From: Eucommia ulmoides
Taxonomy: Eukaryota > Streptophyta > Magnoliopsida > Garryales > Eucommiaceae
DNA: 64,000 nucleotides
Direction: 5' to 3'
NCBI GenBank assembly: GCA_016647705.1
Contig: CM028336.1
Location: 1,364,001 to 1,428,000, forward strand
Every line of letters begins with the position of its first letter. The first letter of the stretch is position 1. Positions 2,310-63,669 of this stretch are shown in pieces. Below the pieces are notes generated by a model. It was given only the letters and a program-made list of their open reading frames with translations, ran no database searches and was not told the DNA's origin. Made by a program: the position numbers and the translations under genes.

Positions 2310-2800
2310 GTTATGCCTTATTTCACACTTGATGCCACACCTCTTGGAGATGCTCTGGCATTATAAAATTTCTAAATCATCCCGACATAGTCCTGATTAT
2401 TATATAACCGTTGATGTTTTTTTAGCAAACAATTACTCGTCGCACGTGTGACAAATTTTTAAGTTTTTTTATCAACATTTTCAACATTCTCTTCCCCTCC
2501 AAATACTCAGTAATATGTATAAAACATAAAGAGAGACTAGAAATGGATAGTCCCCTTCAAAATAGTAGGATGCATGATATGTAAAGTTAGTGATTTGAAC
2601 TGAAGTAGATTGATTAAGAAATTTCAGGATATCTACGAGGACCAAAGTGAGATAATAGTCAAAGTTTAAGGTATAAAGTGTCAAAAATCCTTGTAATGTG
2701 AAAACCCTCTCTAGGGCATCTCTATTTCACTCATTCCTCAAATATACTTTTAAGTTTTTTAGGGTGATTTTGGATTTCTCTCGACTTCCAAAAGTTAACT
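2310..2800. other. Non-coding stretch shared with unit 3, with half of a MITE
   Basis: No gene is visible. The stretch is nearly identical to 62814-63290. Positions about 2560-2700 match, in reverse, one end of the MITE family found in intron 9 (GTGTCAAAA end with the 'accaaagtgagataatag' type motif), so this is probably a partial MITE. Short open frames here have no supporting features. Confidence 0.5.

Positions 2801-13717: not shown

Positions 13718-24326
<10,609 letters not shown>

Positions 24327-32026: not shown

Positions 32027-32033
<7 letters not shown>

Positions 32034-32111
<78 letters not shown>
32034..32111. repeat. (TA)n microsatellite inside the solo LTR
   Basis: About 78 bp of TA dinucleotides followed by a short (CA)n run. 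Open frames predicted across it (Tyr-Ile repeats) are artefacts. Confidence 0.95.
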
Positions 32112-32123
<12 letters not shown>

Positions 32124-33814
32124 GCGAAGAAAATTCGAGAACCGAAGAGAAGGAAGAGAGAGAAAGGAAGAGAAAGGAGAGAGAGAGAGAGTTCGGGTGT
32201 AGCGTCGATGGTGAGGTGCAGGGTGGTTGGCGGTGGGCTGTTTTGTTCAGAGAGTTCGTTCAGCGTGGTGGTCGGTTGATCGTGTCGTCGTCGGTGGTAT
32301 TACGGTTCACCGGAGATCTGCGGTTGTCTGTTCGGTGGTGCTCCGAGGTGATTGTGTAAGTTCTGGCGTGAGTACGGTGTGTGTATGTGTGTTCTCTACT
32401 GTTCAATCTCCGACGAGCGTGTGTGTGTGTGATCGGTGAAGGATGATCGGCGGTGTGGCGTCGCTGTTTATCATTGACGTTCGGTGAGTGTGTGGGTGTT
32501 GTTCGGGTGTTCAACCGTTGGTGGGTGTGTGAGCTATGCAGGCGTCAGAGGTGTGGTTGTTTCATCAGACGTGTGTATGTGTGTCGGACGTGGTGTATCT
32601 GCAGGCCGGCGGTGCGTGTGTGGTTGTTGCTGTCTGGCGGTGGGGGTGGTTGTGCCAACAGCGTGTGTGTGTTCCTTGTTACTGTTTTTGTTCCATTTTT
32701 GCTCCCGTTCCATGTTTGTTTCCGTTTTATTTTGTTCCAGATGTGGGTGGTGGTCGGTTGTTGGCTGGTTGTTTGGTTGGTGGTGGTGATTGCCGGAAAT
32801 TAGTAAGGATAGAGGGAGTGGACGGCTGAAAAATCGACAAAACAGAGCAGAAAGGAGGAGGAGCGCTCGCTTAGGTGGAGGAAAGTTCGCCTAGGAGGTG
32901 GAAGATCAGTGTCAGAATGAGAGAAAGTTCACCTAGGTAGAAGTTTCTCGCCTAGGCGGTAGGTCGTCAGTGTATAACTTAGAACGGTAAAGGAGCTCGG
33001 TCGCCTGAGCGGTGGTTTGGCGCTCAGGCGGTGAAACTACAGTGTGCAGTTGCGAGTAAGGGAGAAGCAGTCACTCGTTCGCTTCGGCGGTGGGACGTCG
33101 CTTAGGCGGTGAGGGAGCAGAATCAGAAAATACATAGAATTTTAGGGAAATCCACGATCGGTTTGGAATGGGTAACCTTTCTAATTTATTTTGTGAATTC
33201 TAAATTTAGTTTTCTAACCTTAGAATAATAAAATGAAAATAATAAATCTTGAGATTGATTATAAGAATAAAGTTTATAAATAGTAAACCGTAACGAAACG
33301 ATACTAGTTGAATAGTTATATTTCGTAATAAAAGATGGGAAATAGGAAATGAAGGAAATTAGGATTTCATGGCGTGATTAGTTTGTTTTATACAAAAATA
33401 TTAATTTAGGCCTTGTCACTGTTAGGTTCGCGGGCACCGGAGTTCAGATATTGGATAGTCGGTTAAAGTTTACGAAAACGGATATCAGATGAGTGTATTG
33501 CCCTTCTTTCCAAACTATTTTCGTATAGATATGATGAGATATGTATTTATTTAATTGTACGAATTTTATAAATTATATGGATCAAGCCAGTTGTGGGTGA
33601 GTTGGTAAAATGAATTTCCGTTGAAATGTTTGGGTTTTAAAAATAAAGACTTTATAAATAATCTGTTGGATTTGGTGGTTTTAATAAAAGGTGGGAAAAA
33701 CATAATTTTTAAATTAAAAGTGGGTTTTATTAAAAAGAGGTGGACAAGGGTGATTTTGAGGGTATTGATGTAATGGCGATTTTGTCGATATTATTGAAGT
33801 GGTGATTGTTATTA

Positions 33815-33990
33815 TGGTCTGTCCGGAGGGTGGTCCGGCAGACAGATAATTATTTGTGATTGTGTGATGATAGTATTGAATTGACTATGCCATAGTTTAT
33901 GATGTTATGTCCGGAGGGTGGTCCGGCAGGTGGTGATTTATATCATGGTCTGTCCGGAAGGTGATCCGGCAGATGGATACTTATTATGTG
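33815..33990. repeat. Short tandem motif GTCCGGAGGGTGGTCCGGCA in the solo LTR
   Basis: The motif or close variants occurs near 33822, 33908 and 33953. Upstream, about 32860-33110, a different set of CGCCTAGGCGG and GCTCAGGCGG palindromic motifs recurs. Both sets lie inside the LTR. Confidence 0.7.
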
Positions 33991-36425
33991 ATGATTTATA
34001 TTATTGGCCTCCGGAGACGTCCGGTTGGCGGTGATCTGCGCAGTTAGGTCCACTAAGAAGGCATATCCTACGGATGGTTACGGTACCGTTGCAACTCCCG
34101 ATCGTGAGGTTAAAACGATCACTATGGCTTAGCCGGTGGGTATGAGATTGAGATATGTGTTTTGAGTTGGGGTGTTTTAAATATATATATGATGACTTAT
34201 TATTGAATATGGTGTTTGCAAACTTATTCACATTGTTCTTTTGAAATTGGAGGTTTTACCAACTGTGTGGTGGATATACATATAGTTACGCTTGATCCAT
34301 ATGAATGAATGTGTTATTATTATGTTTAAAAATGGATTTTACTAAGAAGGCAGTACACTCGCAGGTAAATTCTTTAGGAGACGGTCCCCTACTGGCATTA
34401 GGTGGAGTCATCTGGGAAATATCTGAGTTGAGCTGACAGAGAGGAATAAATAGATAGTGAAAGTTTATGTACTTGTTGTATGTCGAATTTCTATAGAACA
34501 TTTATGTAATTATGAAATGTATAAGAAGATAAAAAATGAAACAGGTGATGTCATTTGTCGTCACGCCGGTCCTGGGATTACAGGTGTCTGGGACGGGTTG
34601 TGACAATAAGTCTGCACCGACTTCCTCTGAGGGCCATCCTCCAAATCACCCCTACAGGTCTACCAGGGTAACTTATCGTCTCTCTCATCTTCATGATTTT
34701 CATTGTTTTTCTATCATACTTCATCTGCATGAACCTCAATCCTATAAGAAGGTTAGTACTAATCCTCTTTAGCAAAAAATAATGGACGAAGAACTTTAGG
34801 CCCTAACCAAAACTCATACTTGGGATATTGTGGATCTGTCTCCTGGGAAAATTCCTATTGGATGCAAATGGGTGTTTAAGATCAAAATACTTTTTGATGG
34901 CTCGGTTGACTGATATAAAGCTTGACTTGTTGCCAAGGGTTTTGCTCAGGAATACGGCATTGACTATGAAGAAACCTTTGCTCCAGTGGCTAGACTTACA
35001 TATGTTCGTACACTTCTTGCCATTGCCGCCATTCGGAAGTTGACTCTTTTTCAAATGGATGTCAAAAATGCATCTCTCAATGGGAACCTACTTGAGGAAG
35101 TCTATATGTATCCACCTCCTGGCCTTGCTACCCTTCGAAATAAAGTTTGCCGTCTTCGTCATGTTTTATATGGATTGAAACAAACTACACGTGCCTGGTT
35201 CGCCAAATTTAGTACTACTATTCATCAGTTTGGGTTCACATCTAGTGATCATGATTCGGCTCTGTTTATTCGCCACACTACCAACGGTATTATCCTTCTT
35301 TTAATATATGTGGATGATATAATTATTACTGGAGATGATCTACGTGGTATTTCTGAACTCAAACAGTTTCTCAGTGGTCAATTCGAGATGAAAGATCTTG
35401 GCGTACTCACCTATTTTCTTGGCCTTGAAGTCTCATCCGATTCAGATGAATATTTTCTCTCTCAGGCCAAATATGTCTCGGATCTTCTTTCCAAGACGGG
35501 GATCACTGACTCGACCACTACTACTACTCCTCTCGAGCCGAATGTCAGACTTACCCCACTCGATGGTTCACCTCTTCAGGATGCCACTCTATACTGCCAA
35601 CTGGTTGGAAGTTTTGTATATCTTACTGTTACTCATCCTGATATTGCCTATGCCATTCATCAGGTCAGTCAGTTCTTGTCCGCTCCTCGGACCACTCATT
35701 ACTTGGTTGTTCTTCGCATTCTTCGGTATGTCAAGGGTACTTTATTTCAAGGGTTTCATTTCTCAGCTCAGTCTGCTCCCGTTTTACAAGCCTATTCTGA
35801 TGCCATTGGGCCGGTGACCCCACCGACAGACGTTCCATCATTGGTTACTGTTTCTTTTTGGGTAATTCTATCATTTCCTGGCGTAGTAAGAAACAAACTG
35901 TGATTGCTCACTCCAGTACTGAATCCGAATATCGTGCCATGACTGATGCAACTCAAGAACTTCTCTGGCTTCGATGGCTCCTCGCTGACATGGGCATTTC
36001 TTCTCTTGCTGCCACTACCCTACACTGTGATAACAGGAGTGCTATTCAGATTGCTCACAATGATGTATTCCATGAGTGTACAAAACACATTGAGACTGAT
36101 TTTCACTTCATCTGTCATCACATTCTCCAGAATACGATTTGTCTACAATTCGTCAGTTCAGCCGATCAAACTGCAGACATTTTTACTAAGGCTCATCCAC
36201 CTAGACGCTTTCACTATTTGGTTTACAAACTCAAGTTCACTTCCCACTTATCGCCTTGAGTATGAGGGGGATGTTAATGTAATAATGGGTTTGGCCAACG
36301 TGGCTCATTAGGGCAAACTCTAACCCTTATTTTCCCCTATAAATACATGTGTATAGCTTGTAGTCTTCGTATCATTCTCATATATTCTCAATACAAGATT
36401 CATTCCCTACTTTTCAATTATTTCA

Positions 36426-38099
36426 ACAATAAAAAAATAATTTCGTTGTGAAACTGTTAAATATGAAAAATTCCAATTCTAAAGATCTCGCAAGGGCAAA
36501 TTTGTCATGTAATTTTTGCGTTTTTGAAATTTGGGATTGGACGGTTCGAAAAATCTATACGCTTGGATTATTTGGTTTTTTTCAAACAGTTGGAATTAAT
36601 TAGTAATTTCATATTTAAATTGGATCACTAAAATTTAAAAACCGATAATTTTACTATTTTTAAACTTTGAAAAATGAAGAATGATGACATATATTCTCTC
36701 ACTACCACCATCCCAATAATATTCAAATTCATGATTATTATTGAATGATGAATCGTTTGCTTCTTTATAGTACGTCTCTTTATACACCGTCTGGTAATAG
36801 TGGAAAAAATAATGAATGTAACATGAACGTACAGATCTAAAACAAAAAATAGTAATTGTGATATCATTTTTAAGATTTTATTCAGATGAATCTGAATATA
36901 TAATTATATCGTGAAAAAAAATATGTACAATAATAGTTATTTTGATTTTAATTAAATAATTTCATTGTAAAACCGTTAAATATGAAAAATTTTAATTCTG
37001 AAGATCTCGCAAGGACAAATTTATCATATAATTTTTGTGTTTTTGTAATTTGGGATTGGACAGTTCAAAAAATTTGTACGCTGGGATAATTTTTTTTTTT
37101 TTTTTTTTCCAGTTAGTTGGAATCAATTGGTAATTCCATATTTAAATTGGATCAGTAAAATTTAAAGAAAAATTATCCCAAAAGTCTCATCCCGTAAAAA
37201 CAACACTTTATGGAGTCTTGTAAAAGTGATTTTTTTACACATGAGATGATCCTTAAAAAGTTATTTTTAGAATTTTGAGACCTCTAAAAAAGTTTTTAAA
37301 ATTTAAACGCCCATAATTTTATTGTTTTTGAAATTTTAAAAATAAAATGGTGACAAATATTCTCTTACCACCACCATCTTACTAATATTCAAATTCATGA
37401 TTATGATTGAATGATTTTATACCCCGTTCGTTAATGATGGAAAAAATATTAAATGTAACATGAATGTATAAATCTGAAAATAATGAAAAAAATAGTGATT
37501 ATGATATAATTTTGAATATCTTATTCAGGTGAATCTGAATATATAATTAGATCGTGAAAAAAAAAATGTGTACAATAATAATTATTTTAATTTTAATAAA
37601 TAATTTTATTGTAAAACTGTTAAATATGAAAAATCACAATTTTGAAGATCTCGCAAGGCCAAATTTGTCATGTAATTTTTTGCGCTTTTCAAATTTGGGA
37701 TTGGACAGTTCAAAAAATATGTACGCTGGAATTATTTGATTTTTTTTCATACAGTTATAATCAATTGGTAATTTCATACTTAAATTGAGATCAACGTTAA
37801 TTTTTCTTTAATTTTATTAGATTACTTTTTAAAATTCAAAAACTAAAGAATAATGACATATATTATTTCTTTTTTTGATTTCCCAAGGTATCTCCGCACC
37901 ACAGTCGGCGGAGACTAATCTTTCGAGGTACTCTCAGATGCCAGAAACGGGATACCTCTCCCAACAGAGTACTTTCCATGCACAACCCTCAAGATTCGAT
38001 CTCTGGAGGTTTTGTTTAAGGAGCCCAAGCCCCTTCCGCTTGGACTAACTGTTGGTGACATATATTCTTTCACCCCCACTATCCCACTAATATTTATTA
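36426..38099. repeat. Satellite-like ~530-bp repeat, unit 2 block
   Basis: Near-identical counterpart of 9907-11570, with the same extra inserts and marker copies near 36715 and 37380. No genes. Confidence 0.8.
37869..38055 (-). mobile_element. tRNA-derived SINE, copy 2
   Basis: Same insertion as at 11340-11526, 187 bp, flanked by the 15-bp repeat (37854-37868, with one difference, and 38056-38070). The box-B-like motif and the A tail are on the minus strand. Confidence 0.75.
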
Positions 38100-41923: not shown

Positions 41924-44900
41924 TTAGTCTACTGTTCTGTTCCTCTCTCTCTCTCTCTCTCTTCCGTATATGTGTCTATGCATGAGAAACTGTCTCTTCT
42001 CTTCTCTCTCTGTATGTGTGTGTGCAACTCCCGAACATTTGGCGGTCTCAGGTGTCAAGATATTAATGGTGACTCGTTACTTAGATGAAATCTTGCTTTG
42101 AAAAAATATAAATTATGTAAACACTTACTACAATTCTCATTTATCCGTCTCCATATAAATCACAAGAATTTGACATGATCTAGTTGATCTATGTCGACTA
42201 TTTTGAAAAATGAATATCCATTTTTGATTGTTAGTATCTATTGCTTTTGATTATTTGCAGGTTTTTCAGGCAAAGAAAATTCCCCAAGAAATGGAAGATC
42301 TATGGACTCTCTTCTGCGGTGAAACCGATCATTCAAACGCCGACTTTAGGCTTTTGACACATCGTTCTTCATGCATCAACCACTTGTTGATCATATCTTT
42401 CGATGCATTCATCTTCTTCATCTTCTTATTCAATATATTCTTCAAATCCTCTCAAATCACATCCCGCCGCCGCCAAATTTCGCGTTTGCAATTAATTTCC
42501 TCAATAGTTAACGGTTTCATCGGATTAATCTACTTGGTTTTGGGGATTTGGATGTTAGAAGAGAAATTAAGAAAAACAGGGTCCGCTTTACCTCTGCAAT
42601 GGTGGTTCATGGTTTCCTTCCATGGATTCATCTGGGTATTGGTTTCTTTGACCGTTAGTCTCAGGGGAAGCCATTTTAGACGAGCCCCATTTAGGCTTCT
42701 TTCGATTTTCTCCTTCTTGTTTGCCCTGTGTTCTTTTGGGTTATCCCTGTTTTCCGCCATTGTTAACGCAGATGGGTTGGTCAAGGTCGGTTTACCCCTG
42801 GATTTATCGTATTTTCTTGGGTCTGGTTTGTTGGTTTTATGCGTTTATAAAGCTTACGAAGATCATAATGATGAAATTACCGATGTTTATACACCGTTAA
42901 ACGATTGTAATGATTTAATCACGCCATTTTCGAGGTCTGGTTTTCTGGGTAAAATGTCGTTTTGGTGGTTGAATCCATTGATGAAGAAGGGGAGAGAGAA
43001 GAGTCTGGAAGAAGAAGATATACCAAAACTGAGGGAATCGGAAAGGGCTGAAGCTTGTTATAAGACTTTCATGGCGGTAATCAACAAACAAAAGCAGATG
43101 AATCCGTCAGGACATGTTTCGATCTTGAAAACGATTGTGATTTGTCATAAAACAGAGCTTTTCTTGTCTGGGTTTTTCGCGTTTTTGAAGATCATAACCA
43201 TCTCCGCCGGCCCTCTCCTTCTCAACGCGTTTATCAGGGTTGCAGAAGGCGATTCAAGCTTCGAATATGAAGGCTATGTCTTGGCGATTCTGCTTTTCAT
43301 GTCGAAAATGGTGGAATCGCTGGCGCAACGGCATTGGTACTTCAGGAGTAGGCTCATCGGACTTAAGGTGAGGTCGTTATTAACGGCGGCGATCTATAAA
43401 AAGCAACAGAGACTGTCAAGTTCCAGCAAGAGTACACATTCCGCCAGCGAGATCATGAACTATACCACCGTCGACACGTACAGGATCGGCGAGTTTCCGT
43501 TCTGGGTTCACCAGACTTGGACCACAAGTCTCCAGCTCTGCTTCGCCGTCGCGATTCTGTTCCGGGCGGTGGGGCCGGCGACAATCGCGTCTCTGGCGGT
43601 GATCATCTTGACGGTGATGTGCAACACGCCGCTGGCGAAATTACAGCACCGGTTTCAGACGAAGCTGATGGTGGCGCAGGACTCCCGGCTGAAGGCGGTG
43701 TCCGAAGCCCTCCAGAACATGAAGGTGTTGAAGCTCTACGCATGGGAGAACCATTTTAAGAACTCCATCGCCGGTCTGAGGATCACAGAGGAGAAATGGC
43801 TGTCGGCGGCTCAGCTCCGGAAGGCGTACAACACGTTTTTGTTCTGGTCGTCGCCGGTTCTGGTATCGACGGCGACCTTCGGAGCCTGCTATTTTCTCGG
43901 CGTTCCTCTGTTCGCAAGCAACGTGTTCACCTTCGTGGCGACGTTACGACTGGTGCAAGATCCGGTGAGGTCGATACCGGACGTGATCGGAATCGCGATT
44001 CAGGCGAAGGTGGCGTTTGCGAGGATCGTGAAGTTTTTGGAGTCGCCGGAGCTCGACGTCGGAATTGTCCGGCGAAAATCCTGTAAAACGGCGAAGACGA
44101 ACGGCGAAATTCGCATCGAATCGGCGAATCTATCGTGGGAAGAAAATCAAACGAAACCCAGTTTGAGAAATATAGATTTGCAGGTCCGATCAGGCGAAAA
44201 GGTCGCCATTTGTAGAGAGGTCGGCTCGGGGAAATCCACCCTTTTAGCCGCCACTCTTGGAGAGGTCCCATATATCCAAGGAATTGTAAGTTCTATTTTT
44301 TATTATTTTTTTTAAGGCCTTTACTTCCACTTCCCTACAGTCCACATTCGGTACAGCCAGTCAAAATTAGTTACAAATTTTTACATGAATTAATATCTTT
44401 TTAAAAAAATTTGTAACTTCCTTCAGACGAAGTTGTTACTTTTTTGGCTATAGAGAACTGTAGGTTGTATTGTAGTCAAGTCCATTTTTTAATTGTAAGT
44501 TCCATTTATCCGGTAAAGTAAAAATATGTCGTTAGGATTCAAGCCTGTGAAAAAATACTTTTGAAAAGGACAATCACGCATTCTAAACGAGATTAGTCTG
44601 AAATCTCATGTGGTTGTAGCTAGAGACACTTGTGGGTATTAAAAAAAAAAAAAAAATCGTTATTTTTTATTTATTTATTTAGTACTCTCTAAAATTAATT
44701 ACTCCATTTTCCTTATAATATTTTTTTTTGTTTAATTTAACTAAATGCATTTAAAAATTAGTAAAATTAAATATTTAATCTTATTTTACATGTAATGAAT
44801 AAAACTATCATTTGCTATCATTGTAATTTTATTTTATTTTAATAAAAAAAAAGATAAATAGGAAACTAGGGAGAGAACACAATCAAATATTCCTTTACCT

Positions 44901-45456: not shown

Positions 45457-45936
<480 letters not shown>

Positions 45937-48110
45937 TAAATCTTATTTCATAATTTTTGTATTTTTTGGATTGGATTTTTGCAGGATTATGTAATGAAAT
46001 CGCTTTCAGGAAAAACGGTTTTGCTCGTGACACATCAAGTTGATTTTCTTCCAGCTTTTGATTATGTGCTGGTTAATCACCAACTCTGGCCAGTCGTGTT
46101 TGTTTTGTGTTTTCTATTCCCAAATTTTTGTTTCTATTCTCAAAAATCTGCGAACAAGAAACACTATACTAACGCAGGTTTAAATATTGCTCTCAAAATT
46201 TCATTTTATTTCCTAATCTTTTAGTCTTTCGATGTTTTTGTTCAGCTTCGAATTTTTAGAACAAATTTTTTGGGAAAAAATAGCCTTCTTTCCAGGCTTT
46301 CGGGTTTTCTCCAAGTTTTCTGGGAGCAAAAACATAAATCAGGGAACAAAAACGCTAAACAAACACCGGTTTAAGATTCGAACTGTCCTGGTTTTTAGTT
46401 TTTCTTCTTGAAAGATGATTATGGTTTATATATTTCTCTAAATTTTTGGTATTAAACTTTTAATTCTTTTGAAAACTGGTAACTCTTTTTTCGGCTCTCA
46501 GATTTTTAGAACAAATTTTTGGGAACAAAAGTTCATTCTTCCCAGACTTTTGCTTCTGCTCCAAGTTTTCTGGAGCAAAAACAGAAATCTGGAAACATAA
46601 ACACTAAACAAATGCCAAAATTTTAGATTCAAACTAAATTTTCTCGTTTTTTTGGCTCTAAACAGTTGATGTCGGATGGCGAAATCTTTCAATCTGCTCC
46701 TTATCTTGATTTACTTTCTTCAAGCAAAGAATTTCAAGAGCTTGTCAATGCTCACAAAGAGACCGCCGGTTCCGAAAGGCTCGCAGAGGTTACTTCTTCC
46801 ACAAGGCACGAAAAAGAGATCGCTAGAGACGACAGAAAGCCTCAAACTGATAACATATCTAAACAAAAACCAGGGGCGGATCAGTTGATTAAGCAAGAAG
46901 AGAGAGAAGTAGGGGACGCCGGCTTCAAACCCTACATTCAATACCTAAACCAGAACAAGGGTTTCTTGTTCTTCGCCATGGCCGCCCTCTGTCATGTCAT
47001 TTTTGTTGTCGCCCAGATTTCTCAAAACACTTGGATGGCGGCTAATGTCGATAATCCCGAAGTTAGCACATTGCGGTTAACCACGGTTTACTTGGTGATC
47101 GGATTCGTTTCGACCTTGTTTTTGCTTAGTAGATCGCTATGCACGGTGGTTTTAGGCTTCCAGTCGTCGAAATCTTTGTTCTCAGAGCTTTTGAATTCTC
47201 TTTTTCGTGCTCCAATGTCGTTTTACGACTCCACGCCTTTGGGAAGGATTCTAAGTCGAGTAAGTAACCTTAAGAAACACGCAAAAGGGTAATTTTTAGT
47301 AGTCCATTGATTCTGTCGGAAGTCTAAAGTCACTCTACTGTTGTCAGAGACGGATCTATAAATTAATTGAGAGGCGACTAAAAAAATTTATTTTAGATGG
47401 TAAAATAAATCAGTGGATTTTATATTAAATTTTAAAGATCATACATATATATAAATATAGGGATAAAAGTAAAAAAAAAAAATCAAATACTCAAGGTGGG
47501 GGCTTGTATAGCTTTTCCACATACAATGCAGTGAATGATTTTAGATTTTTGAAAAAATTACTGTAACGCGTGGATTGCATGAACATAATCTTTTTCTTAA
47601 TGAATGCGTGTTATTTTTGTATACAGGTTTCCGTTGATTTGAGTATTGTCGATCTTGATCTTCCATTTAATTTAATTTTCGCGGTTGGCGCAACCACGAA
47701 TGCCTATGCGAATCTCTTGGTGTTGGGCGTCGTCACTTGGCAAATCTTGTTCGTCTCCATACCGATGATTTTTTTGGCTATTCAATTACAGAAATATTAT
47801 TTTGCGTCGGCGAAAGAGTTGATGAGGATTAACGGCACGACCAAGTCATTCGTGGCAAACCATCTCGTTGAATCGTTGGCCGGAGTTGTGACAATAAGAG
47901 CTTTCAAAGAAGAAGATCGCTTTTTCGCAAAAAATCTCGCCCTGATCGATATGAACGCCACCCCGTTTTTCCATAATTTTGCAGCGAATGAGTGGTTGAT
48001 CCAACGGCTAGAAACGCTTTGCGCTATCGTTCTTGCCTCATCTGCACTTTGCATGGTCTTGCTTCCTACCGGAACCTTTAGCTCCGGTAATACTTTAATG
48101 ACACATTGAT

Positions 48111-48414: not shown

Positions 48415-49719
48415 CACGTTTTTTTAATTTGAATTTTTTTTTTGGGAAATTTAAAATAATTATTATATATTTTTGCAGGGTTTATTGGAATGGCATTGTC
48501 ATATGGGCTATCATTGAATATGTTCCTTGTTGTCTACATTCAAAATCAATGTACATTAGCAAATTCTGTCATCTCTGTGGAGAGACTTAACCAATATATG
48601 CATATTCCAAGTGAGGCTCCTGAAGTCATAGAAGACCGCTGGCCACCGGTGAATTGGCCGACTTCCGGCAAAGTAGAAATTCAAGATTTGCAGGTAAAGA
48701 ACTCAATCTTTTTTTTTTTTTTTTGGTGACCCATTAATTTTTGGGTTAATTACACTTTATCTTCTTGTTCTTGTTGTTGGATTCGAATTGTATGTTAAAT
48801 ATGTTGGGTTTATCTCATGTCGGTTGGAGAAATAATTACTAGTCAAGTTATAAGTGTGAGAAAAAATTTCACCTCACTCTCCACTGCTATCAGAGTCCAA
48901 ATTACAACAACTCTACCCCAATAACCATGGAGGGAGAGACAAGTCGAGGGTTAGCCGACCAAAAGTCTGATGTGTGAAGGAAAGATTATTGGGTTCATCC
49001 CATATTGGATGTGGAAGAGGCTGGTGGTCAGGTTATAAGTGAGGAAAATTCTCACGTCAGGAGCTAGTTTTGGGGGGGTGAAAGAGGCCCAACATTACCT
49101 TCCATTGGTATCGAAACCCAGGTTACAATAACTTCAGCCCAATAGCCACAAAAAGAAAGACCGGTCGAGGTTTAGCCAACCAAAAACCTGATGTGTGAGG
49201 TGAAAATTGTTGAGTTTATTCTACATTAGACTCGTGATCAGATTATAAGTGCGAGAAAAAATCTCACATTATTAGCAAACTTTTGGAGGTGAGGGAGGAC
49301 CAAAAGCACCCTATAAAATAGTACTATTTTGTCAAAATTCTTAGAACAAAATAGAATTGTTCTCAAAAATATGTTTTTGAAACAAAAAAAAAAAAAAAGA
49401 ACTTGGAATAGCAACAAAAATATGGGAACAAAAACACTAAACCAGACATCCAACAAATGTTTTTTTTTTTTTTTTTAAAACAGATAAGATATAGGGCAAA
49501 TGCGCCGCTTGTTCTTCGTGAGATAAGTTGTGTTTTCGAAGGAGGGGATAAGATCGGAATAGTTGGCCGGACAGGCAGCGGGAAGACTACACTAATCGGA
49601 GCTCTGTTCCGGCTGGTGGAGCCGACAGGTGGCAAGATCTTAGTGGACGGGATCGACATATCGGTGATCGGACTCCATGATTTGAGGTCTCGGTTGGGGA
49701 TAATACCACAGGATCCTAC

Positions 49720-51154
49720 TGATCGCTCAAAAATAATACCCTTAAATTGGTACCGCGATACTGATGTAGTACGGTGTTCAAGTAGGGTGTCGAACCACAG
49801 AGATCGGTCTTGTAATTATCAATTTCTGATTACTTTTCTTTCTTTAGTGAAAACAATTTTGATTTTTTTAAAATAAGAAAAGAAAATATTAAATCTAAAA
49901 TAAAAATAAAATAAAGAACCAGGATAGGAATTGTGGGGTTAGTATTTTGAGAATTATGTTTTTCTCGTATTTTCTATTTAAATCGGATTTGTATAAACGA
50001 GTGTTCCTAACTACAAGCCGGAACTACTCAGAAATATATGGATTGTTATTCTCCGGCATGATCTATCTTCGGTATTTAATTCCTACATTAAACTAATCTA
50101 AGGTGAATTAAAATCTAGGCATAAACCATCCAGACCAATAATCAATCCCCAAGAATACGATTGTGTGGCCATTAAATCAAGACCACAGGTGCAAGATTTA
50201 ATGTTCTAGCAATAATTGAATTCAAATCAAAATCTCTACAAGAACATTTTGACAATAAATTCAATTATAATTAAATTCATTTTTACGAACGGAATTCCTT
50301 CCACACAATTGTTTATACGAAATCCAAATTTAAATAAGAAAAATACAATATTACATAAATTCAAAAGTACAATACCACAATCCTAACCTGGTTGAAGGAA
50401 GTTAGCTTTTCATTGTTGCATTGAGTGGTATTTTCTCGGATAATATCCTCACAAACACCATTTACACTTTGTACCCCAAACTATTCTCCCTTCCAAAAAT
50501 AAAAATGAAATAAAAGAAAAACAAATAAGAAAATACTACAACTATTCTAAGAATGAAGTAGGAATATATTCATTTTTTTTGCTCTCAAACCTCCCATCTA
50601 TTTATAGAATCAAAAAGGTGAGTTTTGGGGTGAATTTGAGTCAAAAGAGGAGGCTAGGGGTGCAAAAAGTCAAATATGGAGAGCAATGGGGTTGTTGAGC
50701 AATTTTTCCACCGGAGTGGGCGCGGGTCGGGCCGGATCGGGCCGGGTTCGGGTCAAAATGGTTTGACCCGCAGCACTATGTGGCTGCACAGAAGGACCAT
50801 CTTCAAACGGTTGTATCTTTTTCATACGAACTCCGATTTGGCTCTATAACCAGTCGTTGGAAAGCTTAGAGAGTCTACTTTCATATGAAACTTGTATCAT
50901 CTCAGAATTCCAACTGTATAATTAGTTATGTCCAAAACAATGGACAGTGGTCTTGATTCTAGTGCCGAAAATCGCGACTTTTATCCGTTTGATCATTTTC
51001 TCTTAATTTTGCTCCAAATTAACATGGTTTTGTACCATTTCCAAAATCCTACAAAAACAAATAAAACAACTTAATTTATAATATTTTAATTTATTTAAAA
51101 GATTAACAAAACTTAATTTAGTGGTATTAGATTGCACAAAATGAGGTGCTATCA
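49720..51154 (-). mobile_element. 3' LTR of the young element
   Basis: 1435 bp, starting TGATCGCTC and ending GGTGCTATCA. The polypurine-type tract adjoins its right end, which makes it the 3' LTR on the minus strand. Confidence 0.92.
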
Positions 51155-52018
51155 CACCCCCAAACCTAAATTTTGCTAGTCCTCGAGCAAAACTAAATAT
51201 AATAATTAAATAAAAAGTCATTTTCGTAGCGAACACGATTGCATTTAGCATATGCAATAAGCCTTTAAACCTCTAGGTCACCCCTAGTGGACGAGTATAG
51301 TCTCGTGAGGGTTTACAGTGATGCTACCCACAAACATCTCAAAATCTCTTTTTCGTGCATATTATCTCTCACAAAATTTTTATCAATCTTATCCAATGCT
51401 AACATATCAAATCAAGGGCAAACAAGAGTTACTAAAATAGTCATTAATCTCATAGCACGTGATTTTTAACAATATTCATTTTTGTACCCACGACATATAT
51501 ACAACTCTCGTTTATAATGAATTTAACACATGTAGTTAGTCAACTGGTTTTGTACAATTCAAACAATCTTTTCCCCAAAATAAAAAATATTTGTTTATAT
51601 CGGTGTTGTTTCTTTCTTTTTTTTTTTTTTTTTTTTAATTATATTTTTTTAATTTTTTTTTTTTTTTTTGTAAGTAATTTTCTTTAAATAAGTGACATGT
51701 GCAATGTTAACCTCACTGGGCTTTCTAAGATGTCCGTGTAGCGAGTGTTGGACCAATGATCCCAATCCAGTTGGCTCGGGGCACTAGGTGTTAAAGCACC
51801 TTTCAGGTTTAATAACTCGAACAACTTAGGCTTCGAAGTTAACAAGCCTCTTATCGTCTTAATAAATTGTTTTCCCCTTTTGACGCGAACACTCAAAACT
51901 TACTGAGGCAAGAGGTCCGGTTACTTAGCGAAAGTTCATTACTAAGACAGAAAATCTTTATTAGTATCACAATTTATTTATTTTTATTTTTTAAAAAAAA
52001 TAATTTATTTGTTTGTTT

Positions 52019-52055
<37 letters not shown>

Positions 52056-52558
52056 TTTAGGGATAGGTTATTTTCTTATCAAAATTCAGTAAACTAACTT
52101 TTGTACTAAATTTAAAATAAAATAAAGTTAGCATGCATGTAAGCGTCGAAAAATGAAATATTTTTAAAAATCAGTGCTCTGCTCAATAATTATTTAGCAA
52201 ATTCTAGTTTGTACCCGACAGATGTGTTATCAAATGATAGATTGACAAAATTAAGTGTGAAATAAAATATCAGAAAGAATACAAGCATTTACCCCCCCAA
52301 ACCGGAATCTTGCATTGTCCGCAATGTGAAAATGACAAAATTAAATTAGCAAGGAGAGATACAACCTGATGTATCGGAATTGCTTATTTGTACTGAGTCG
52401 ATGTGGACTGCTCGTAAATCTGTCAGATAGAACACTCAAAGAAATCTTATTAAATCAAATATAAACACTAAAATTAGAAAATTAACACAACAGTGGGTTG
52501 CCTCCCACTCAGCGCTAATTTTAACGTCTTTAGCCGGACGTTGAGTGTCTTAACCCCA

Positions 52559-53770
52559 CTAACCGTAGTGAAGTAACCCACTTCTTACCTTCTGTTGAGT
52601 TACTCTCCAGTCGGTGAGTGATGGATAGTGGCCGACACTCAAATTTTTAAACTTCTTTCCCGGATCAAATCCCATTTCTTTTCGTTGGGACTTACTTGGT
52701 GGTCTTTTTATTAGGCCCCCAAATAGAAGTTGAGTTACATCAACCCAAACAAAAAGGCATGATTTTTTTGTGGTTTGGTTTGACGGTTGGTCCACTGCAT
52801 CAAAAAGATATGCCTTAATTTTTGGATGCGGTGGTAAAGGTATAATGGATGTCCCTATCAAAGGAAGATTACCCAAATGTGTCTCGGATGATTGGATCTC
52901 ATTTTCCTTATGACTTTCTACCTTGATCTCCTCCATGTATGTATTTTTGACTTTTTCACTCACCTGCTCACCATCACTTTTGTTCCCTATTTTTTTTTCT
53001 GCCTCACAAATTGGTAATGGTTGAGCCCAAAACGGCTCAAACTCGTGATCATATCGTTTGGGTTCCTCACCAATTTTGCTTAGCTGTGGTCCTTTTGACA
53101 ACTTTCTAAATTCACTTTCGTGCTCTAGACCACTTTTCTTATCACCTACCCGAACGTCAGTCTCTAGACCATTTTTTGCAATTTCCTCTTTTACTAATTC
53201 AATGATTCGCCTAACTAGGGTTTCTTTCCAATCTATCTCTTCAAATTGTTTTTTCAAGGATTGAGCTCGCCTTTCCAAGATTTGGTTTTGCCTTTCTGAG
53301 ATTTGGCCTTGCTCTACTAAGGATTGGTGATTTTCCGTTAAGGTTTGACGTTCCTCTGTTAAGGCTTGGTTAGTCTCTACTAGGGATTGGTTTTGCTCTT
53401 CCAAGATTGTTAGCATTTGTTGCATTACAGTGGGTTCAAAATTCCTAGCTTCTTGGGAAAATGATGGTTGACATTGAGGTTGGTAAAATGATTGATCGTA
53501 ACAATACGACCCTGAAAGCTCACTATAATATTGTTGATCCCATCCGTAATTATTCGAGTATTGATTAGACTCAGGCGGCGAATAATATGGATCGAGATAA
53601 ACATTGTTATAGAGGTCCGTGGGATTATGGTAATTGTACGTAAATTGATTGGTGAAATGGTGTGGATTTTGGTCTGTGGTACATGAGTAAAGGTCAGGTT
53701 GGGGTCTTGAGAGAAAATATTGTTGAGAATCTGCAAATGAAATAGCAAATCTCTCAAAGTAATTTTCCAT
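52559..53770 (-). CDS. Single 403-residue open frame of the young LTR element, function unknown
   Basis: It is the only long frame inside the element. The N-terminal ~110 residues are rich in Tyr, Asn, Gln and Pro. Residues about 115-200 form a Gln/Glu-rich heptad-like coiled-coil segment with repeats of the type 'LTEERQTLTE' and 'LVEQGQISER'. The C-terminal third is charged and ends near 'YPSLTDWRVTQQ'. I see no zinc knuckle, protease or polymerase motif. Its position after the primer-binding site suggests a gag-like or accessory product of the element; homology is not recognised. Confidence 0.55.
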   Translation of the reverse strand: MENYFERFAISFADSQQYFLSRPQPDLYSCTTDQNPHHFTNQFTYNYHNPTDLYNNVYLDPYYSPPESNQYSNNYGWDQQYYSELSGSYCYDQSFYQPQCQPSFSQEARNFEPTVMQQMLTILEEQNQSLVETNQALTEERQTLTENHQSLVEQGQISERQNQILERRAQSLKKQFEEIDWKETLVRRIIELVKEEIAKNGLETDVRVGDKKSGLEHESEFRKLSKGPQLSKIGEEPKRYDHEFEPFWAQPLPICEAEKKIGNKSDGEQVSEKVKNTYMEEIKVESHKENEIQSSETHLGNLPLIGTSIIPLPPHPKIKAYLFDAVDQPSNQTTKKSCLFVWVDVTQLLFGGLIKRPPSKSQRKEMGFDPGKKFKNLSVGHYPSLTDWRVTQQKVRSGLLHYG

Positions 53771-54285
53771 TTACCCAAGTCTAATTTTTTTTTTTTTTTT
53801 TTTTTAATTTTTTTAATTTTTTTTATTTTTTTTTTTATATATTTTTATATTTTTTTAACAAATTAAAACAATTATATCAACAAGCGATCTGGAGGCTCAG
53901 CCTACCAGTTAAGAAAAAAAATTAAAATAAATAAATGCGAATAAGAGGCTCAACCTACCAGATAACAGAATAAAGATAAAGGATGGAGGCCCAGCCTACC
54001 TGTCAACAATTTAATAAACTAATTTTTCTAATAATAATTTTTTTGATTTTTGATTTTTTTTTTTTTTAATTTTTTTGTTGTTATTTATTTATTTTTTTAA
54101 AGAAAAATTAAACAGATTAAACTGAATCCTTGCTTGAAGATTTGGAATGAAAGATTGGATCTCGATTAACCTGGAAAAAATAAAACTCAAGAAAAAAAAA
54201 TTGATGAATTTATACAGATGGAGAAAAAAAAAATAACAAAAATTAATAATTAGCGATGCCAATCCCCGGCAACGGCGCCAAAATT

Positions 54286-55720
54286 TAATCGCTCAAAAAT
54301 AATACCCTTAAATTGGTACCGCGATACTGATGTAGTACGGTGTTCAAGTAGGGTGTCGAACCACAGAGATCGGTCTTGTAATTATCAATTTTTGATTACT
54401 TTTCTTTCTTTAGTGAAAACAATTTTGATTTTTTTAAAATAAGAAAAGAAAATATTAAATCTAAAATAAAAATAAAATAAAGAACCAGGATAGGAATTGT
54501 GGGGTTAGTATTTTGAGAATTATGTTTTTCTCGTATTTTCTATTTAAATCGGATTTGTATAAACGAGTGTTCCTAACTACAAGCCGGAACTACTCAGAAA
54601 TATATGGATTGTTATTCTCCGGCATGATCTATCTTCGGTATTTAATTCCTACATTAAACTAATCTAAGGTGAATTAAAATCTAGGCATAAACCATCCAGA
54701 CCAATAATCAATCCCCAAGAATACGATTGTGTGGCCATTAAATCAAGACCACAGGTGCAAGATTTAATGTTCTAGCAATAATTGAATTCAAATCAAAATC
54801 TCTACAAGAACATTTTGACAATAAATTCAATTATAATTAAATTCATTTTTACGAACGGAATTCCTTCCACACAATTGTTTATACGAAATCCAAATTTAAA
54901 TAAGAAAAATACAATATTACATAAATTCAAAAGTACAATACCACAATCCTAACCTGGTTGAAGGAAGTTAGCTTTTCATTGTTGCATTGAGTGGTATTTT
55001 CTCGGATAATATCCTCACAAACACCATTTACACTTTGTACCCCAAACTATTCTCCCTTCCAAAAATAAAAATGAAATAAAAGAAAAACAAATAAGAAAAT
55101 ACTACAACTATTCTAAGAATGAAGTAGGAATATATTCATTTTTTTTGCTCTCAAACCTCCCATCTATTTATAGAATCAAAAAGGTGAGTTTTAGGGTGAA
55201 TTTGAGTCAAAAGAGGAGGCTAGGGGTGCAAAAAGTCAAATATGGAGAGCAATGGGGTTGTTGAGCAATTTTTCCACCGGAGTGGGCGCGGGTCGGGCCG
55301 GATCGGGCCGGGTTCGGGTCAAAATGGTTTGACCCGCAGCACTATGTGGCTGCACAGAAGGACCATCTTCAAACGGTTGTATCTTTTTCATACGAACTCC
55401 GATTTGGCTCTATAACCAGTCGTTGGAAAGCTTAGAGAGTCTACTTTCATATGAAACTTGTATCATCTCAGAATTCCAACTGTATAATTAGTTATGTCCA
55501 AAACAATGGACAGTGGTCTTGATTCTAGTGCCGAAAATCGCGACTTTTATCCGTTTGATCATTTTCTCTTAATTTTGCTCCAAATTAACATGGTTTTGTA
55601 CCATTTCCAAAATCCTACAAAAACAAATAAAACAACTTAATTTATAATATTTTAATTTATTTAAAAGATTAACAAAACTTAATTTAGTGGTATTAGATTG
55701 CACAAAATGAGGTGCTATCA
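54286..55720 (-). mobile_element. 5' LTR of the young element
   Basis: 1435 bp, adjoining the tRNA-Asp-type primer-binding site at its left edge, ending GGTGCTATCA before the second CCTAC. Confidence 0.92.
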
Positions 55721-55845
55721 CCTACTCTCTTCAATGGAACTGTGAGGTACAATTTGGATCCTCTGTCTCACCATTCTGATCAAGAAATTTGGGAGGTAAT
55801 TTTCCATTTTCCAATTTATTTTTATTTTATTTTATTTATTATTAC

Positions 55846-56047
55846 TGTTAATATTTGAATATGGGCTTGACCATTCGGTTAATATATGTATATAGACTTG
55901 GTCCATTAGGTCAAAATCCTAACCCTGTGATTACTTCATTCTCCTATATATATTTCTATTGTAAATTTTTGTATTGGACTGTTTTCCTGAATATCAATAT
56001 ATCACTCTATATTTCTCTCAATAATCTATCTTCCAATTATCTTAACA
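55846..56047 (+). mobile_element. Solo LTR in intron 7, copy 2
   Basis: Counterpart of 21414-21615; 202 bp with ATTAC on both sides (55841-55845 and 56048-56052). Confidence 0.8.
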
Positions 56048-56154
56048 ATTACTAATATTATTTTTATCATTATTACCATCATTTTTTTAGGTTCTTGGAA
56101 AATGTCAACTCAAGGAGGTTGTTCAAGATAAAGAAAATGGCTTGGAGTCCTTAG

Positions 56155-57981
<1,827 letters not shown>

Positions 57982-58334: not shown

Positions 58335-59054
58335 AATATTCATAATTTTTCGATTAATATATCACTTATTTTTATTTTCTTATTAATATTTTTTAATCAA
58401 TCACGTCAATCTTATCTCGCATATTTTTAAAAAATTAATAAAAAATATTTTCAAAAATTAAAAGAAATAGTAAATGAAGCACTGTCGCCACTCCACAAAT
58501 ATGCAGTTCGGTTCACATTCATTATTTTCTCTCCTACGGGCAATGATGTAATTGGAGTTCAACTAAACATTTCTGGAGTGCCAATTTTATTTTCCTTTTG
58601 ACAAATCTAAATAATTTTTTTTTTAATTTTCAGAAAAATAATTTTAAACTTTCTGAAACTATTTTCGAGTTATAAACCGAACAGGTAATAAAAATTTTAA
58701 TTTTATTTTAATAGGAAAACTAGTGGAATATGATGAGCCAATGAAGTTGATGAAGAGAGAAGATTCACTCTTTGGACAGCTTGTGAAGGAGTATTGGTCT
58801 CATTCTCACTCTCCACATTCACAAACAACCTCTCTCTTTTAATTTCTAACATTATAACACTTTTTTTTGGTTAAATTAAGGAAGATGGTCTTGAGTTTTA
58901 GTTTTTGACATGTAACTTTTTTTTTTTTTTTTTTTTTTTGTAATTTCTAATTTTGTAATATAAGCCTATTTGCTATGAACCCTATTATGTTGCCTTCTTG
59001 GCAGAATTTAATTCTAGTGGTTATTCGATCTTTTCAGATTCGGTTTGGTTTGGT

Positions 59055-61423: not shown

Positions 61424-62813
61424 TGTAATACCCCAAAAATTTAGATTCTTGAAAATATTACTTTATATAAAAGTTTAATATTTTTGGGACTCTTTTGTAA
61501 ATTTATGGTATAAATAATATTAGATAATTTTTTTGAGTGAAATTTTTATTTTAAATTGATTTTAAAATTTTTGGGACTAATGTGTTAGTTAAAATATATT
61601 TTTAAGAGTTTTGGGATATAATTAATATTTTTTTATTTATTTTAAAGGGATATTTATATAATAAATAAATTAATAAATGATGGATATTGTTTCTTTATAT
61701 ATTTATATAACAGGTGTATATGTTAATATATAATAATAATAATAATAAGAAGAAGAAGAAAAAAAAAAAAAAACAGGGCTTCTTGATAACCGGAAGGAAG
61801 GGGATCAGATGCATAGCCGTGGATGGCCATTAGAAAAAAAAAAAGAATGAAATTTCATTTTGATTATTAAACCAAAATGATATTATATTCCGAATGTTTT
61901 GAGAATTTTGGTTCGAATTTCAGCTTTAAATTTCAGGTAAAATTTCTAACTCTTTTAATATACGTATATAATTTTTCTATTGTAGGATTCGTCTTATTTT
62001 TATTATCAAATTATAGCTGTTAATTTTTATGAAATAATTATGTTTATGTGAAAATCACGTTTATGTGTTTTATTTGTCACATTAATTAAATGCACATATT
62101 AGAGGAGATGGAGGTCTACTGAGCGTTGGCTCACAATCCCACAATTTTGATTGCAGGACCGGTGGGAACGAAACGACGACATGAATTATATAAGAAATTA
62201 TATTTGTAATAATTGTAGTTAATATTTACTGTTGTAAAAACTAACTCGATAAATTGAATATAGTTATTGTTATCGTATTGTAAAATTTAAATCGATAATT
62301 ATAATTGTCGCCGTAATTGTATATTAAATTATAAATTTAAAACGTTAGTATTAAATTGACCAGCGTCAGGAATTTATTTTGATATTTAAAAATAATACGT
62401 TGACAGGAATTTCAGTTGAATTTCTAATTAAATTGTAATAGTTCAATTTATTATTTACCGTTGTAAAAATTGAATCAATCAATTCTATATTTGTGATTGT
62501 CGCCATTGTTTGTAAAATTTCTCAGATTAATTCGGAATAAATTAGTGGTTACTTGGTTTAGTATATTTGAATTCGTATTTGTAAAAAATGGTATTTATTA
62601 TTTATTGTTATAATCGGTGAATTCAATAATTACAATTTTTGTCGTCGCTTGGTAAATTAAAATATTTTCATAAGGCGAATTACTAATTACTGGATGCCGT
62701 CGCGTTATAAATTTACCATATTTTATAGTGTAAAAATTTGATCAGTAGGATTTTGGTATAAATTCTCTAATGGGAGAAATCGAATAGTAGTCCTGGGAAA
62801 CCGAGCTGTTATA
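61424..62813. mobile_element. Gypsy-type solo LTR at the head of unit 3
   Basis: It starts TGTAATACCCC and ends GAGCTGTTATA, flanked by GTTAT at 61419-61423 and 62814-62818; 1390 bp. The inner part has CACAATCCCACAATTTTGAT followed by GCAGGACCGG, like the transcribed part of chromovirus LTRs. The unit 1 copy (ending at 2309) is split by the Gypsy element at 1-1752. Confidence 0.7.
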
Positions 62814-63290
62814 GTTATACCTTATTTCATACTTGATGCCACACCTCTTGGAGATGCTCTGGCATTTTAAAATTTCCAAATCATCCCGACATAGTCCTGA
62901 TTATTATATAACCGTTGATGCTTTTTCAGCAAACAATTACTCGTCGCACGTGTGACAAATTTTTAAGTTTTTTTACCGATATTTTCAGCATTCTCCTCCC
63001 CTCCAAATACTCAGTAATATGTATAAAACATAAAGAGAGACTAGAAATGGATAGTCCCCTTCAAAATTGTAGGATGCATGATATGTAAAGTTAGTGATTT
63101 GAAATGAAGTAGATTGATTAAGAAATTTCTGGAAATTTACGAGGACCAAAGTGAGATAGTAGTCAAAGTTTAGGGTATAAAGTGTCAAAAACCCTTGTAA
63201 TGTGAAAACTCTCTCTAGGGCATCCCTATTTCACTCATTCTTCTAATATACTATTAAGTGTTTTAAGGTGATTTTGGATTTATCCGTACT
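62814..63290. other. Non-coding stretch shared with unit 1 (2310-2800)
   Basis: Near-identical to the unit 1 segment; no gene seen. Confidence 0.6.
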
Positions 63291-63669
63291 CTAAAAGTTA
63301 ACTCATTATATTTTTTTTTTTAAATAGTTAAAATTAATTAATAATTTCATATTTAAATTAAATTAGTAAAATTTATAATTTTATTATTTTTAAAATTTAA
63401 AAAATAAAGAATGATAACATATATTCTGTTACCACCATCGTCCCACTAATATTCAAATTTATGATTATGATTGAATGATGATACGTTTATTACTTTACAG
63501 TACGTCTCTTTATACCCCGTCTGGTAATGGTGGAAAAAATAGTGAATCATTTTAAAGATCTTATTCAAACGACTATGAATATATAATTAAATCGTGAAAA
63601 AAATATTTACAACAATAGTTATTTTTATTTTAATAAAATAATTTCATTGTGAAATTGTTAAATATGAAA
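63290..63669. repeat. Satellite-like ~530-bp repeat, unit 3 block (partial)
   Basis: It carries the marker CCACTAATATTCAAATTTAT and GTACGTCTCTTTATACCC. It lacks a short stretch around 63546 relative to unit 1. It is cut at 63670 by an LTR. Confidence 0.75.

What the first reader, a model, noticed from the sequence alone, without database searches (positions are those of the whole stretch)
49715..55725. Very young LTR element splits the NBD2 exon of ABCC10 copy 2
The insertion has an exact 5-bp target duplication, LTRs with about three differences over 1435 bp, a tRNA-Asp-type primer site and a purine tract. The remaining coding exons of copy 2 are open. This looks like a gene knocked out very recently, perhaps still polymorphic in the population. 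The lack of pol genes means an active partner element existed recently.
Basis: partly seen in the sequence, partly recalled or inferred. Interest (0 to 1): 0.75.

Follow-up and report, generated by a model that had tools for sequence, protein, structure and literature searches.

The report
Young jumping element splits ABCC10 copy
In an unnamed plant genome, a recently inserted, non-autonomous LTR retrotransposon interrupts one of several tandem copies of a transporter gene, and longer gag-carrying relatives that probably moved it are still in the same genome; this is an ordinary kind of event, with one odd feature, a protein of unknown function where gag-pol should be.

Summary
An LTR element at 49720-55720 (minus strand) is flanked by an exact CCTAC duplication. 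Its 1435-bp LTRs differ at three sites, all changed in the right-hand LTR only. It has a 19-nt primer site of tRNA-Asp type and a purine tract, and cuts exon 7 (NBD2) of an ABCC10 gene whose coding blocks are otherwise open. Recalled clock rates give about 80-150 thousand years (range 17-436), about 5% of the divergence of the duplicated gene copies.

(1) The gene is one of four tandem places: one complete, one open as far as read, one a fragment with a stop. The broken copy also has a private Gly-to-Arg change in its first P-loop, so it may have been weakened already. (2) A candidate autonomous partner exists: longer elements with the same LTR, primer site and 3' region, a Gag domain and open frames of about 1,830 codons in four copies. 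Reverse transcriptase was not confirmed by any domain search. (3) In the short form gag-pol is replaced almost exactly by a 403-aa ORF with long predicted helices and no likeness to Gag, found in about 45 close whole or partial copies.

Polymorphism could not be tested.

The parts
49715..49719 (.). target site duplication CCTAC, left copy
   Evidence: sequence
49720..51154 (-). 3' LTR (1435 bp, TG...CA); 28 of 28 other fetched LTR loci share its state at all three sites where the two LTRs differ
51155..51166 (-). polypurine tract next to the 3' LTR
   Evidence: sequence
51167..52561 (-). 3' non-coding internal region; window 52542-51155 is 95.9% identical to the 3' region of the longer gag-carrying element on C11
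52562..53770 (-). 403-aa ORF, predicted long helices at residues about 106-199, no Gag or other Pfam domain above cut-off; stands in the place of gag-pol
53771..54261 (-). leader; its first part is about 80% identical to the leader of the longer element
54262..54280 (-). primer binding site, 19 nt, tRNA-Asp type (assignment to Asp recalled)
54286..55720 (-). 5' LTR (1435 bp); carries all three derived changes, including the one in its last two bases next to the primer site
55721..55725 (.). target site duplication CCTAC, right copy
   Evidence: sequence
42291..44285 (+). ABCC10 copy 2, exon 1 (ABCC10_N domain, first membrane domain, NBD1 P-loop with Gly-to-Arg)
45565..45885 (+). ABCC10 copy 2, exon 2
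45985..46071 (+). ABCC10 copy 2, exon 3
46666..47259 (+). ABCC10 copy 2, exon 4
47627..48086 (+). ABCC10 copy 2, exon 5
48479..48693 (+). ABCC10 copy 2, exon 6
49484..49719 (+). ABCC10 copy 2, exon 7 (NBD2), first part; reading on into the LTR ends at a stop at 49874 after 1354 codons
55726..55795 (+). ABCC10 copy 2, exon 7, second part
56091..56154 (+). ABCC10 copy 2, exon 8
57719..57958 (+). ABCC10 copy 2, exon 9
58715..58842 (+). ABCC10 copy 2, exon 10; copy 1's stop is lost, so the coding blocks total 1469 codons against 1462
13718..24326 (+). ABCC10 copy 1, complete: ten exons, 1462 aa, internal splice sites GT-AG; carries the empty site in exon 7 (21058-21363)

Best explanation
A non-autonomous LTR retrotransposon, probably of the Ty3/gypsy kind, was reverse-transcribed and integrated by proteins supplied in trans by a longer relative with the same LTR, primer site and 3' region. 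It landed on the antisense strand inside exon 7 of one of four tandem ABCC10 copies and made a 5-bp duplication. Shown: the LTR, TSD, primer-site and purine-tract anatomy; the empty site in copy 1; three changes, all in one LTR; a close sister element on C2 and a near-identical solo LTR on C4; longer relatives carrying a Gag domain in frames of about 1,830 codons. Inferred: that those relatives encode a working reverse transcriptase and integrase, and that they moved this copy. Effect on the gene (inferred from sequence): an unspliced transcript would end 52 codons into the LTR and lose the second part of NBD2. Skipping exon 7 (306 nt in copy 1, a multiple of three) would keep the frame but remove the NBD2 P-loop.
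For: Exact TSD and 3/1435 LTR differences. All three differences are derived in the right LTR: 28 of 28 other fetched LTR loci have the left state (loci were given for 30 of the 40 rows, and the window's own two were dropped). ABCC10_N and ABC domains. The ten coding blocks of copy 2 are open, and copy 1 has the empty site. Insertion young relative to the duplication: 0.21% LTR divergence against 4.27% in introns (256/6001), ratio 0.049. Sister element L032: 2 of 1206 ORF differences. Solo LTR L002: 2/1435, TSD GTAAC. Family recently active: the 13 LTR pairs compared differ by 0-7. Candidate partner: the C11 pair L019/L016 encloses about 7.4 kb, has TSD GTCAT and LTRs 2/1434 apart, PF03732 at 4.8e-22, and open frames of 1832, 1830, 1829 and 1825 codons in four copies; its 3' 1.4 kb is 95.9% identical to the window element. 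Of 61 U5-PBS sites, 33 are followed by the ORF, 11 by gag and 17 by neither, when compared with 45 of the 112 ORF rows and 13 of the 122 gag rows.
Against: A genome-wide RVT_1 search, 150 scored of 16,744 candidates, listed none at these loci. The 1825-codon copy shows one TAA inside its gag match. One base at the far end of the 19-nt primer site differs in L019. Dates rest on recalled rates and three events. The conserved tract round the insertion site (2/600 differences from copy 1) shows that exchange between gene copies occurs, so local divergence is not a clean clock.
Confidence: 0.92

Rival explanations
1. Copy 2 was already a failing duplicate before the insertion, so the element is a late passenger rather than the cause of loss. 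The NBD1 P-loop had lost its first glycine, and replacement changes were accumulating.
For: GEVGSGKS in copies 0 and 1 is REVGSGKS in copy 2, which no longer fits the P-loop pattern [AG]x4GK[ST] (pattern recalled). The ABC_tran score of exon 1 is 33.3 bits in copy 1 and 25.4 in copy 2. Changes private to copy 2 over exons 1-8 are 31 replacement to 21 silent, against 20:21 in copy 1 and 27:48 in copy 0. Because LTR divergence is only about 5% of the intron divergence of the two gene copies, most of these changes are probably older than the insertion (inference).
Against: No stop or frameshift in the coding blocks. The excess over copy 1 is not significant (P = 0.40; P = 0.011 against copy 0, whose branch is longer). 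Exon 7 and the next intron are nearly identical to copy 1.
Confidence: 0.35
2. The gene still makes product: the element is spliced out as an intron, or exon 7 is skipped in frame.
For: The exon is 306 nt in copy 1, a multiple of three, so skipping keeps the frame. The element lies antisense to the gene.
Against: Skipping would remove the NBD2 P-loop. Read-through ends at 49874. No RNA data were available.
Confidence: 0.06
3. The LTRs look alike because of gene conversion between them, not because the element is young.
For: Exchange between repeats occurs in this family: solo LTRs and multi-LTR arrays are present, and the LTR part differs from sister L032 more than the interior does, if a poly-T block is left out.
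Against: The interior is also very close to L032 (9 differences over about 3100 bp without the poly-T block, 19 with it) and the left LTR is 2/1435 from a solo LTR elsewhere, so youth shows in more than the LTR pair. The TSD is exact.
Confidence: 0.05
4. Assembly artefact: reads from another copy joined into the exon.
For: The family is repetitive (3550 first-look candidates for the LTR).
Against: A perfect 5-bp TSD with clean flanks, three private changes in one LTR, and the same anatomy with other TSDs at other loci.
Confidence: 0.02

Closest known systems
RLG_Cereba / RLG_Quinta autonomous and non-autonomous pair of wheat (PMC11302176, abstract and section 5 read)
   Same: The short element shares primer site, LTR ends and LTR sequence with a longer gag-carrying partner, has its own ORF where the partner has its polyprotein, and both were recently active.
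   Different: [quoted passage not shown] the 403-aa ORF here shows no relation to Gag by Pfam or BLASTP. No centromere targeting was examined. Here the whole LTR is about 98% and 1.4 kb of 3' region 96% alike.
TR-GAG elements (terminal-repeat retrotransposons with GAG; passages read in PMC8704663)
   Same: LTR element with a single ORF, no pol, dependent on a relative for movement.
   Different: The defining GAG domain was searched for and not found.
LARD, large retrotransposon derivative (definition recalled; search listings only)
   Same: Long LTRs, primer site, purine tract, no gag-pol.
   Different: LARDs have a large non-coding interior; this interior is 3.1 kb and carries an ORF matched by about 45 close rows.
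Retand and other plant elements with extra ORFs (PMC11963269, abstract and passages read; PMC6317226, passages read)
   Same: Non-chromovirus plant gypsy elements use tRNAs such as tRNA-Asp and may carry extra ORFs; non-autonomous copies occur.
   Different: Those extra ORFs accompany gag-pol as a rule and in Retand lie antisense behind pol; here the ORF is in sense and replaces gag-pol.

Membership tests
LTR retrotransposon | two direct LTRs with TG...CA ends, short target duplication, primer site and purine tract | tested here: met
   the right LTR's inner end is TA by a derived change
Ty3/gypsy (Metaviridae) | reverse transcriptase and integrase phylogeny or domain order | not testable with these tools
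   the window element has no pol; the partner's RT piece could not be fetched; only its Gag (PF03732) was confirmed
non-autonomous member of an autonomous/non-autonomous pair (criteria as stated in PMC11302176) | identical primer site, same LTR ends, conserved LTR regulatory half shared with a coding relative | tested here: met
   LTRs L016/L019 about 98% identical to the window LTR; U5 end and 18 nt of primer site shared, with one base at the far end of the 19 nt different in L019; shared 3' region 95.9%
autonomous status of the longer form | gag, protease, reverse transcriptase, RNase H and integrase in open frame | tested here: inconclusive
   Gag confirmed; open frames of 1825-1832 codons in four copies; the piece where pol should begin is open in the gag frame but has no significant Pfam hit
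TR-GAG | ORF encodes a GAG domain | tested here: not met
   no gag family among six hits at E up to 10, the best being PXA at 0.01 below its cut-off; BLASTP against the partner's Gag E = 2.1
LARD | large interior without coding capacity (recalled) | tested here: not met
   403-aa ORF, open in 24 of 30 fetched copies, the window's own included
ABCC10 transporter gene | ABCC10_N domain with two membrane and two nucleotide-binding domains | tested here: met
   PF24358, PF00664 and PF00005 hits over five pieces of copy 1, and over the two pieces of copy 2 that were scanned; exon model

The most novel reading that the evidence does not exclude
The short elements are a long-lived lineage in which gag-pol was replaced, almost to the codon, by a 403-aa helical protein that is not Gag but helps the pair replicate or target, so that the two element types together form a two-part system. 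Both lines have a young cluster and an old one (ORF 90-100% and 49-70%, gag 94-100% and mostly 61-84%), as if they had amplified in parallel. Selection evidence is modest: omega 0.79, 0.65 and 0.73 against three old relatives, P = 0.11, 0.001 and 0.03.
Probability: 0.2. Interest if true: 0.6.

Novelty: new member of a known kind. Interest (0 to 1): 0.33.

Why it matters
It is a datable example of a retrotransposon interrupting one member of a tandem gene array, with the empty site, a close sister element and a candidate helper all visible in one genome. For gene-family evolution it shows one of several duplicates being broken. For mobile elements the useful lead is the short form's own ORF: if that protein is needed for movement, the division of labour between the two forms becomes testable by comparing copies and expression across species.

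Tried and rejected
Pfam family ATHILA (PF03078) in the own genome gave nothing, but its 14 controls were silent too, so this says nothing. RVT_1 in the own genome, 150 of 16,744 candidates scored, did not list the partner loci; uninformative. A single-sequence fold of the 403-aa ORF gave mean pLDDT 43 with only the helices at about 112-202 above 50, so no fold search was run. PDB and NCBIfam gave no useful match for the ORF: the best PDB rows are designed proteins at E = 0.055 and above, over the helical part. Strong purifying selection on the ORF was considered and withdrawn: NG86 gave dN/dS about 0.35, and pooled transversions of 13/15/123 by codon position looked striking, but counting distinct sites gave 8/5/13. 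With transition bias allowed for, singletons give omega 1.18 and shared sites 0.72 (P = 0.55 and 0.23; 26 copies after 4 array members were dropped); against three old relatives 0.79, 0.65 and 0.73. The absence of indels in the ORF is biased, because copies were picked by protein match. The mosaic with L032 is weaker than first computed: 15/985 LTR differences include the window's own three private changes; without them 12/985 against 9/3100 gives P = 0.001, and 0.06 if the poly-T block is kept. A search of the own genome with ABCC10 exon 1 did not complete, so ABCC10 copies elsewhere than on C12 are argued against only by the exon 7 flank search (40 of 717 candidates scored). Papers: one search for ABCC10 with retrotransposon insertions (3 papers) and one for tandem duplication of plant ABCC10 (12 of 16 papers listed) showed nothing on this case in titles and abstract starts; these are the only searches behind that statement.
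Full report
WHAT IS THERE. The element runs from 49720 to 55720 and is read on the minus strand. Both sides carry CCTAC (49715-49719, 55721-55725). The LTRs are 1435 bp each, align without gaps, and differ at three positions. Next to the right LTR is a 19-nt primer site (54262-54280). A 24-nt string recalled as the end of plant tRNA-Asp, which shares 18 nt with it, is found at 8 places in the genome; that these are tRNA-Asp genes was not tested. Next to the left LTR is a purine tract. The interior is 3131 bp, with one long ORF of 403 codons (52562-53770) and no pol.

THE GENE. Copy 1 (13718-24326) has ten exons with GT-AG internal splice sites and encodes 1462 aa, with ABCC10_N, ABC_membrane and ABC_tran domains. 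Copy 2 has the same ten blocks; with the insertion set aside they hold no stop and total 1469 codons, copy 1's stop being lost. The insertion falls in exon 7, between the P-loop and the rest of NBD2. Read-through would end at 49874 after 1354 codons, 1302 of them native. Over copy 1's coding length the exons differ at 103 of 4389 positions, and the introns at 256 of 6001.

ONE OF FOUR. The exon 7 flank is found at four tandem places on C12 (the other 36 of 40 rows are short matches at about 77-83%). Copy 0, upstream of the window, is open through exons 1-8 (1351 codons, 0 stops); exon 9 was read for 45 bp and exon 10 not at all. Copy 3, downstream, shows part of exon 6 and exons 7-8, with no match to exons 1-5 in the 7 kb before them; its exons 9-10 were not read, and its exon 7 has a stop in frame. 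So the array keeps at least one complete copy and one open as far as read.

WAS COPY 2 SOUND BEFORE? Of the three copies compared, copy 2 alone has Arg for the first Gly of the NBD1 P-loop. Private changes over exons 1-8 are 31 replacement to 21 silent in copy 2, 20:21 in copy 1 and 27:48 in copy 0. The difference from copy 1 is not significant (P = 0.40; P = 0.011 against copy 0). I read this as possible prior weakening, not proof. Against it, exon 7 and the next intron are almost identical to copy 1: 2 differences in 600 bp against 3.5% overall. The lowest 500-column window has 2, while 300 shuffles have a 1st percentile of 4. This suggests a recent exchange between copies round the later insertion site.

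AGE. All three LTR differences are changes in the right LTR: 28 of 28 other fetched LTR loci, the solo L002 included, have the left state. With rates of 1.3e-8 or 7e-9 per site and year (recalled) the age is about 80 or 149 thousand years, Poisson ranges 17-235 and 31-436. LTR divergence is 4.9% of copy 1/copy 2 intron divergence. The window element is not the youngest: one pair (L008/L009) is identical over 1433 bp, and the others compared differ by 0-7.

RELATIVES. The nearest LTR among the rows scored (2/1435) is a solo LTR on C4 with TSD GTAAC. The nearest interior is L032 on C2: 2 differences in the ORF, and 9 in about 3100 bp leaving out a poly-T block (19 with it). L032's LTR part differs at 15 of 985, 3 of which are the window's own private changes. 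With 12 of 985 the contrast with the interior has P = 0.001 without the poly-T block and 0.06 with it (the first computation used 15). This hints at a mosaic made by template switching, or later conversion of L032's LTR. Two loci have 4 and 3 LTRs in tandem between one TSD (C2:10659136-10674108, GCTGG; C4:52799788-52810237, CCGCC), as unequal exchange would make.

THE CANDIDATE PARTNER. The LTR pair L019/L016 on C11 is about 98% identical to the window LTR, has TSD GTCAT, and encloses about 7.4 kb. Its first part encodes a Retrotrans_gag domain (PF03732, E = 4.8e-22). The frame is open for 1832 codons, and relatives on C7, C3 and C14 have 1830, 1829 and 1825 (the C14 gag match shows one TAA). 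Its last 1.4 kb is 95.9% identical to window 52542-51155, and the first 455 bp of its leader are 80% identical. The shared 3' region begins about 20 bp beyond the end of the 403-aa ORF in the window, and about 11 bp beyond the end of the 1832-codon frame on C11 (16076960 against 16076972). So the ORF stands almost exactly where gag-pol stands in the longer form. Of 61 U5-PBS sites, 33 are followed by the ORF, 11 by gag and 17 by neither, comparing with 45 of 112 ORF rows (those at 90% or more) and 13 of 122 gag rows. By eye, 3 of the 17 (C4:13125013, C6:16682407, C11:7325018) have the pre-pol piece about 3.2-3.5 kb downstream at 71%, so they look like older long forms. The helper role is therefore probable, not shown.

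THE ORF. It has 112 matched rows, 45 of them at 90% identity or more, the window's own and partial ones included; 24 of 30 fetched copies are open. It has no Pfam family above cut-off and no NCBIfam hit; PDB likeness is limited to designed proteins over the helical part at E = 0.055 and above. It is not similar to the partner's Gag. Evidence for selection is modest once shared ancestry and transition bias are allowed for.

COMPARISON. The nearest described case found is the wheat Cereba/Quinta pair (PMC11302176, abstract and section 5 read), in which the short form carries a Gag. TR-GAG elements (PMC8704663, passages read) are defined by a GAG domain, which is not found here. The event is ordinary in kind; the ORF is the one odd feature.

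Noticed in passing
window 31768-34677: The Copia-like element in the second duplication unit (29723-36448) is interrupted between about 31768 and 34677 relative to its twin in unit 1; the insert includes a long TA-type repeat and a strongly G-skewed stretch (GC skew 0.42 at 32001-34000).
   Followed up: no
window 21096-21697 against 49522-56129: The tract round the insertion site differs at 2 of 600 positions between gene copies 1 and 2 (3.5% overall), which suggests a recent gene conversion.
   Followed up: partly
window 1868-3168 and 62372-63586: The window's start and end match each other, so the tandem array goes on beyond the window; two more ABCC10 exon 7 places lie outside it.
   Followed up: partly
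L025, L028, L027 (C2) and L024, L023, L029 (C4): Arrays of 4 and 3 LTRs with interiors between, each bounded by a single 5-bp duplication: multimeric insertions, probably from unequal exchange.
   Followed up: partly
L032 against window 54286-55270 and 51155-54285: The window element's interior is nearest to L032 but its LTR is less so: a possible mosaic, P = 0.001 without a poly-T block and 0.06 with it.
   Followed up: partly
L069-L071 and rows: Old relatives of the 403-aa ORF (49-70% identity, most rows with stops) suggest that the short form is an old lineage with at least one earlier burst.
   Followed up: partly
window 42291-44285 (exon 1 of copy 2): Gly-to-Arg at the first position of the NBD1 P-loop in copy 2 only, of the three copies compared.
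   Followed up: yes
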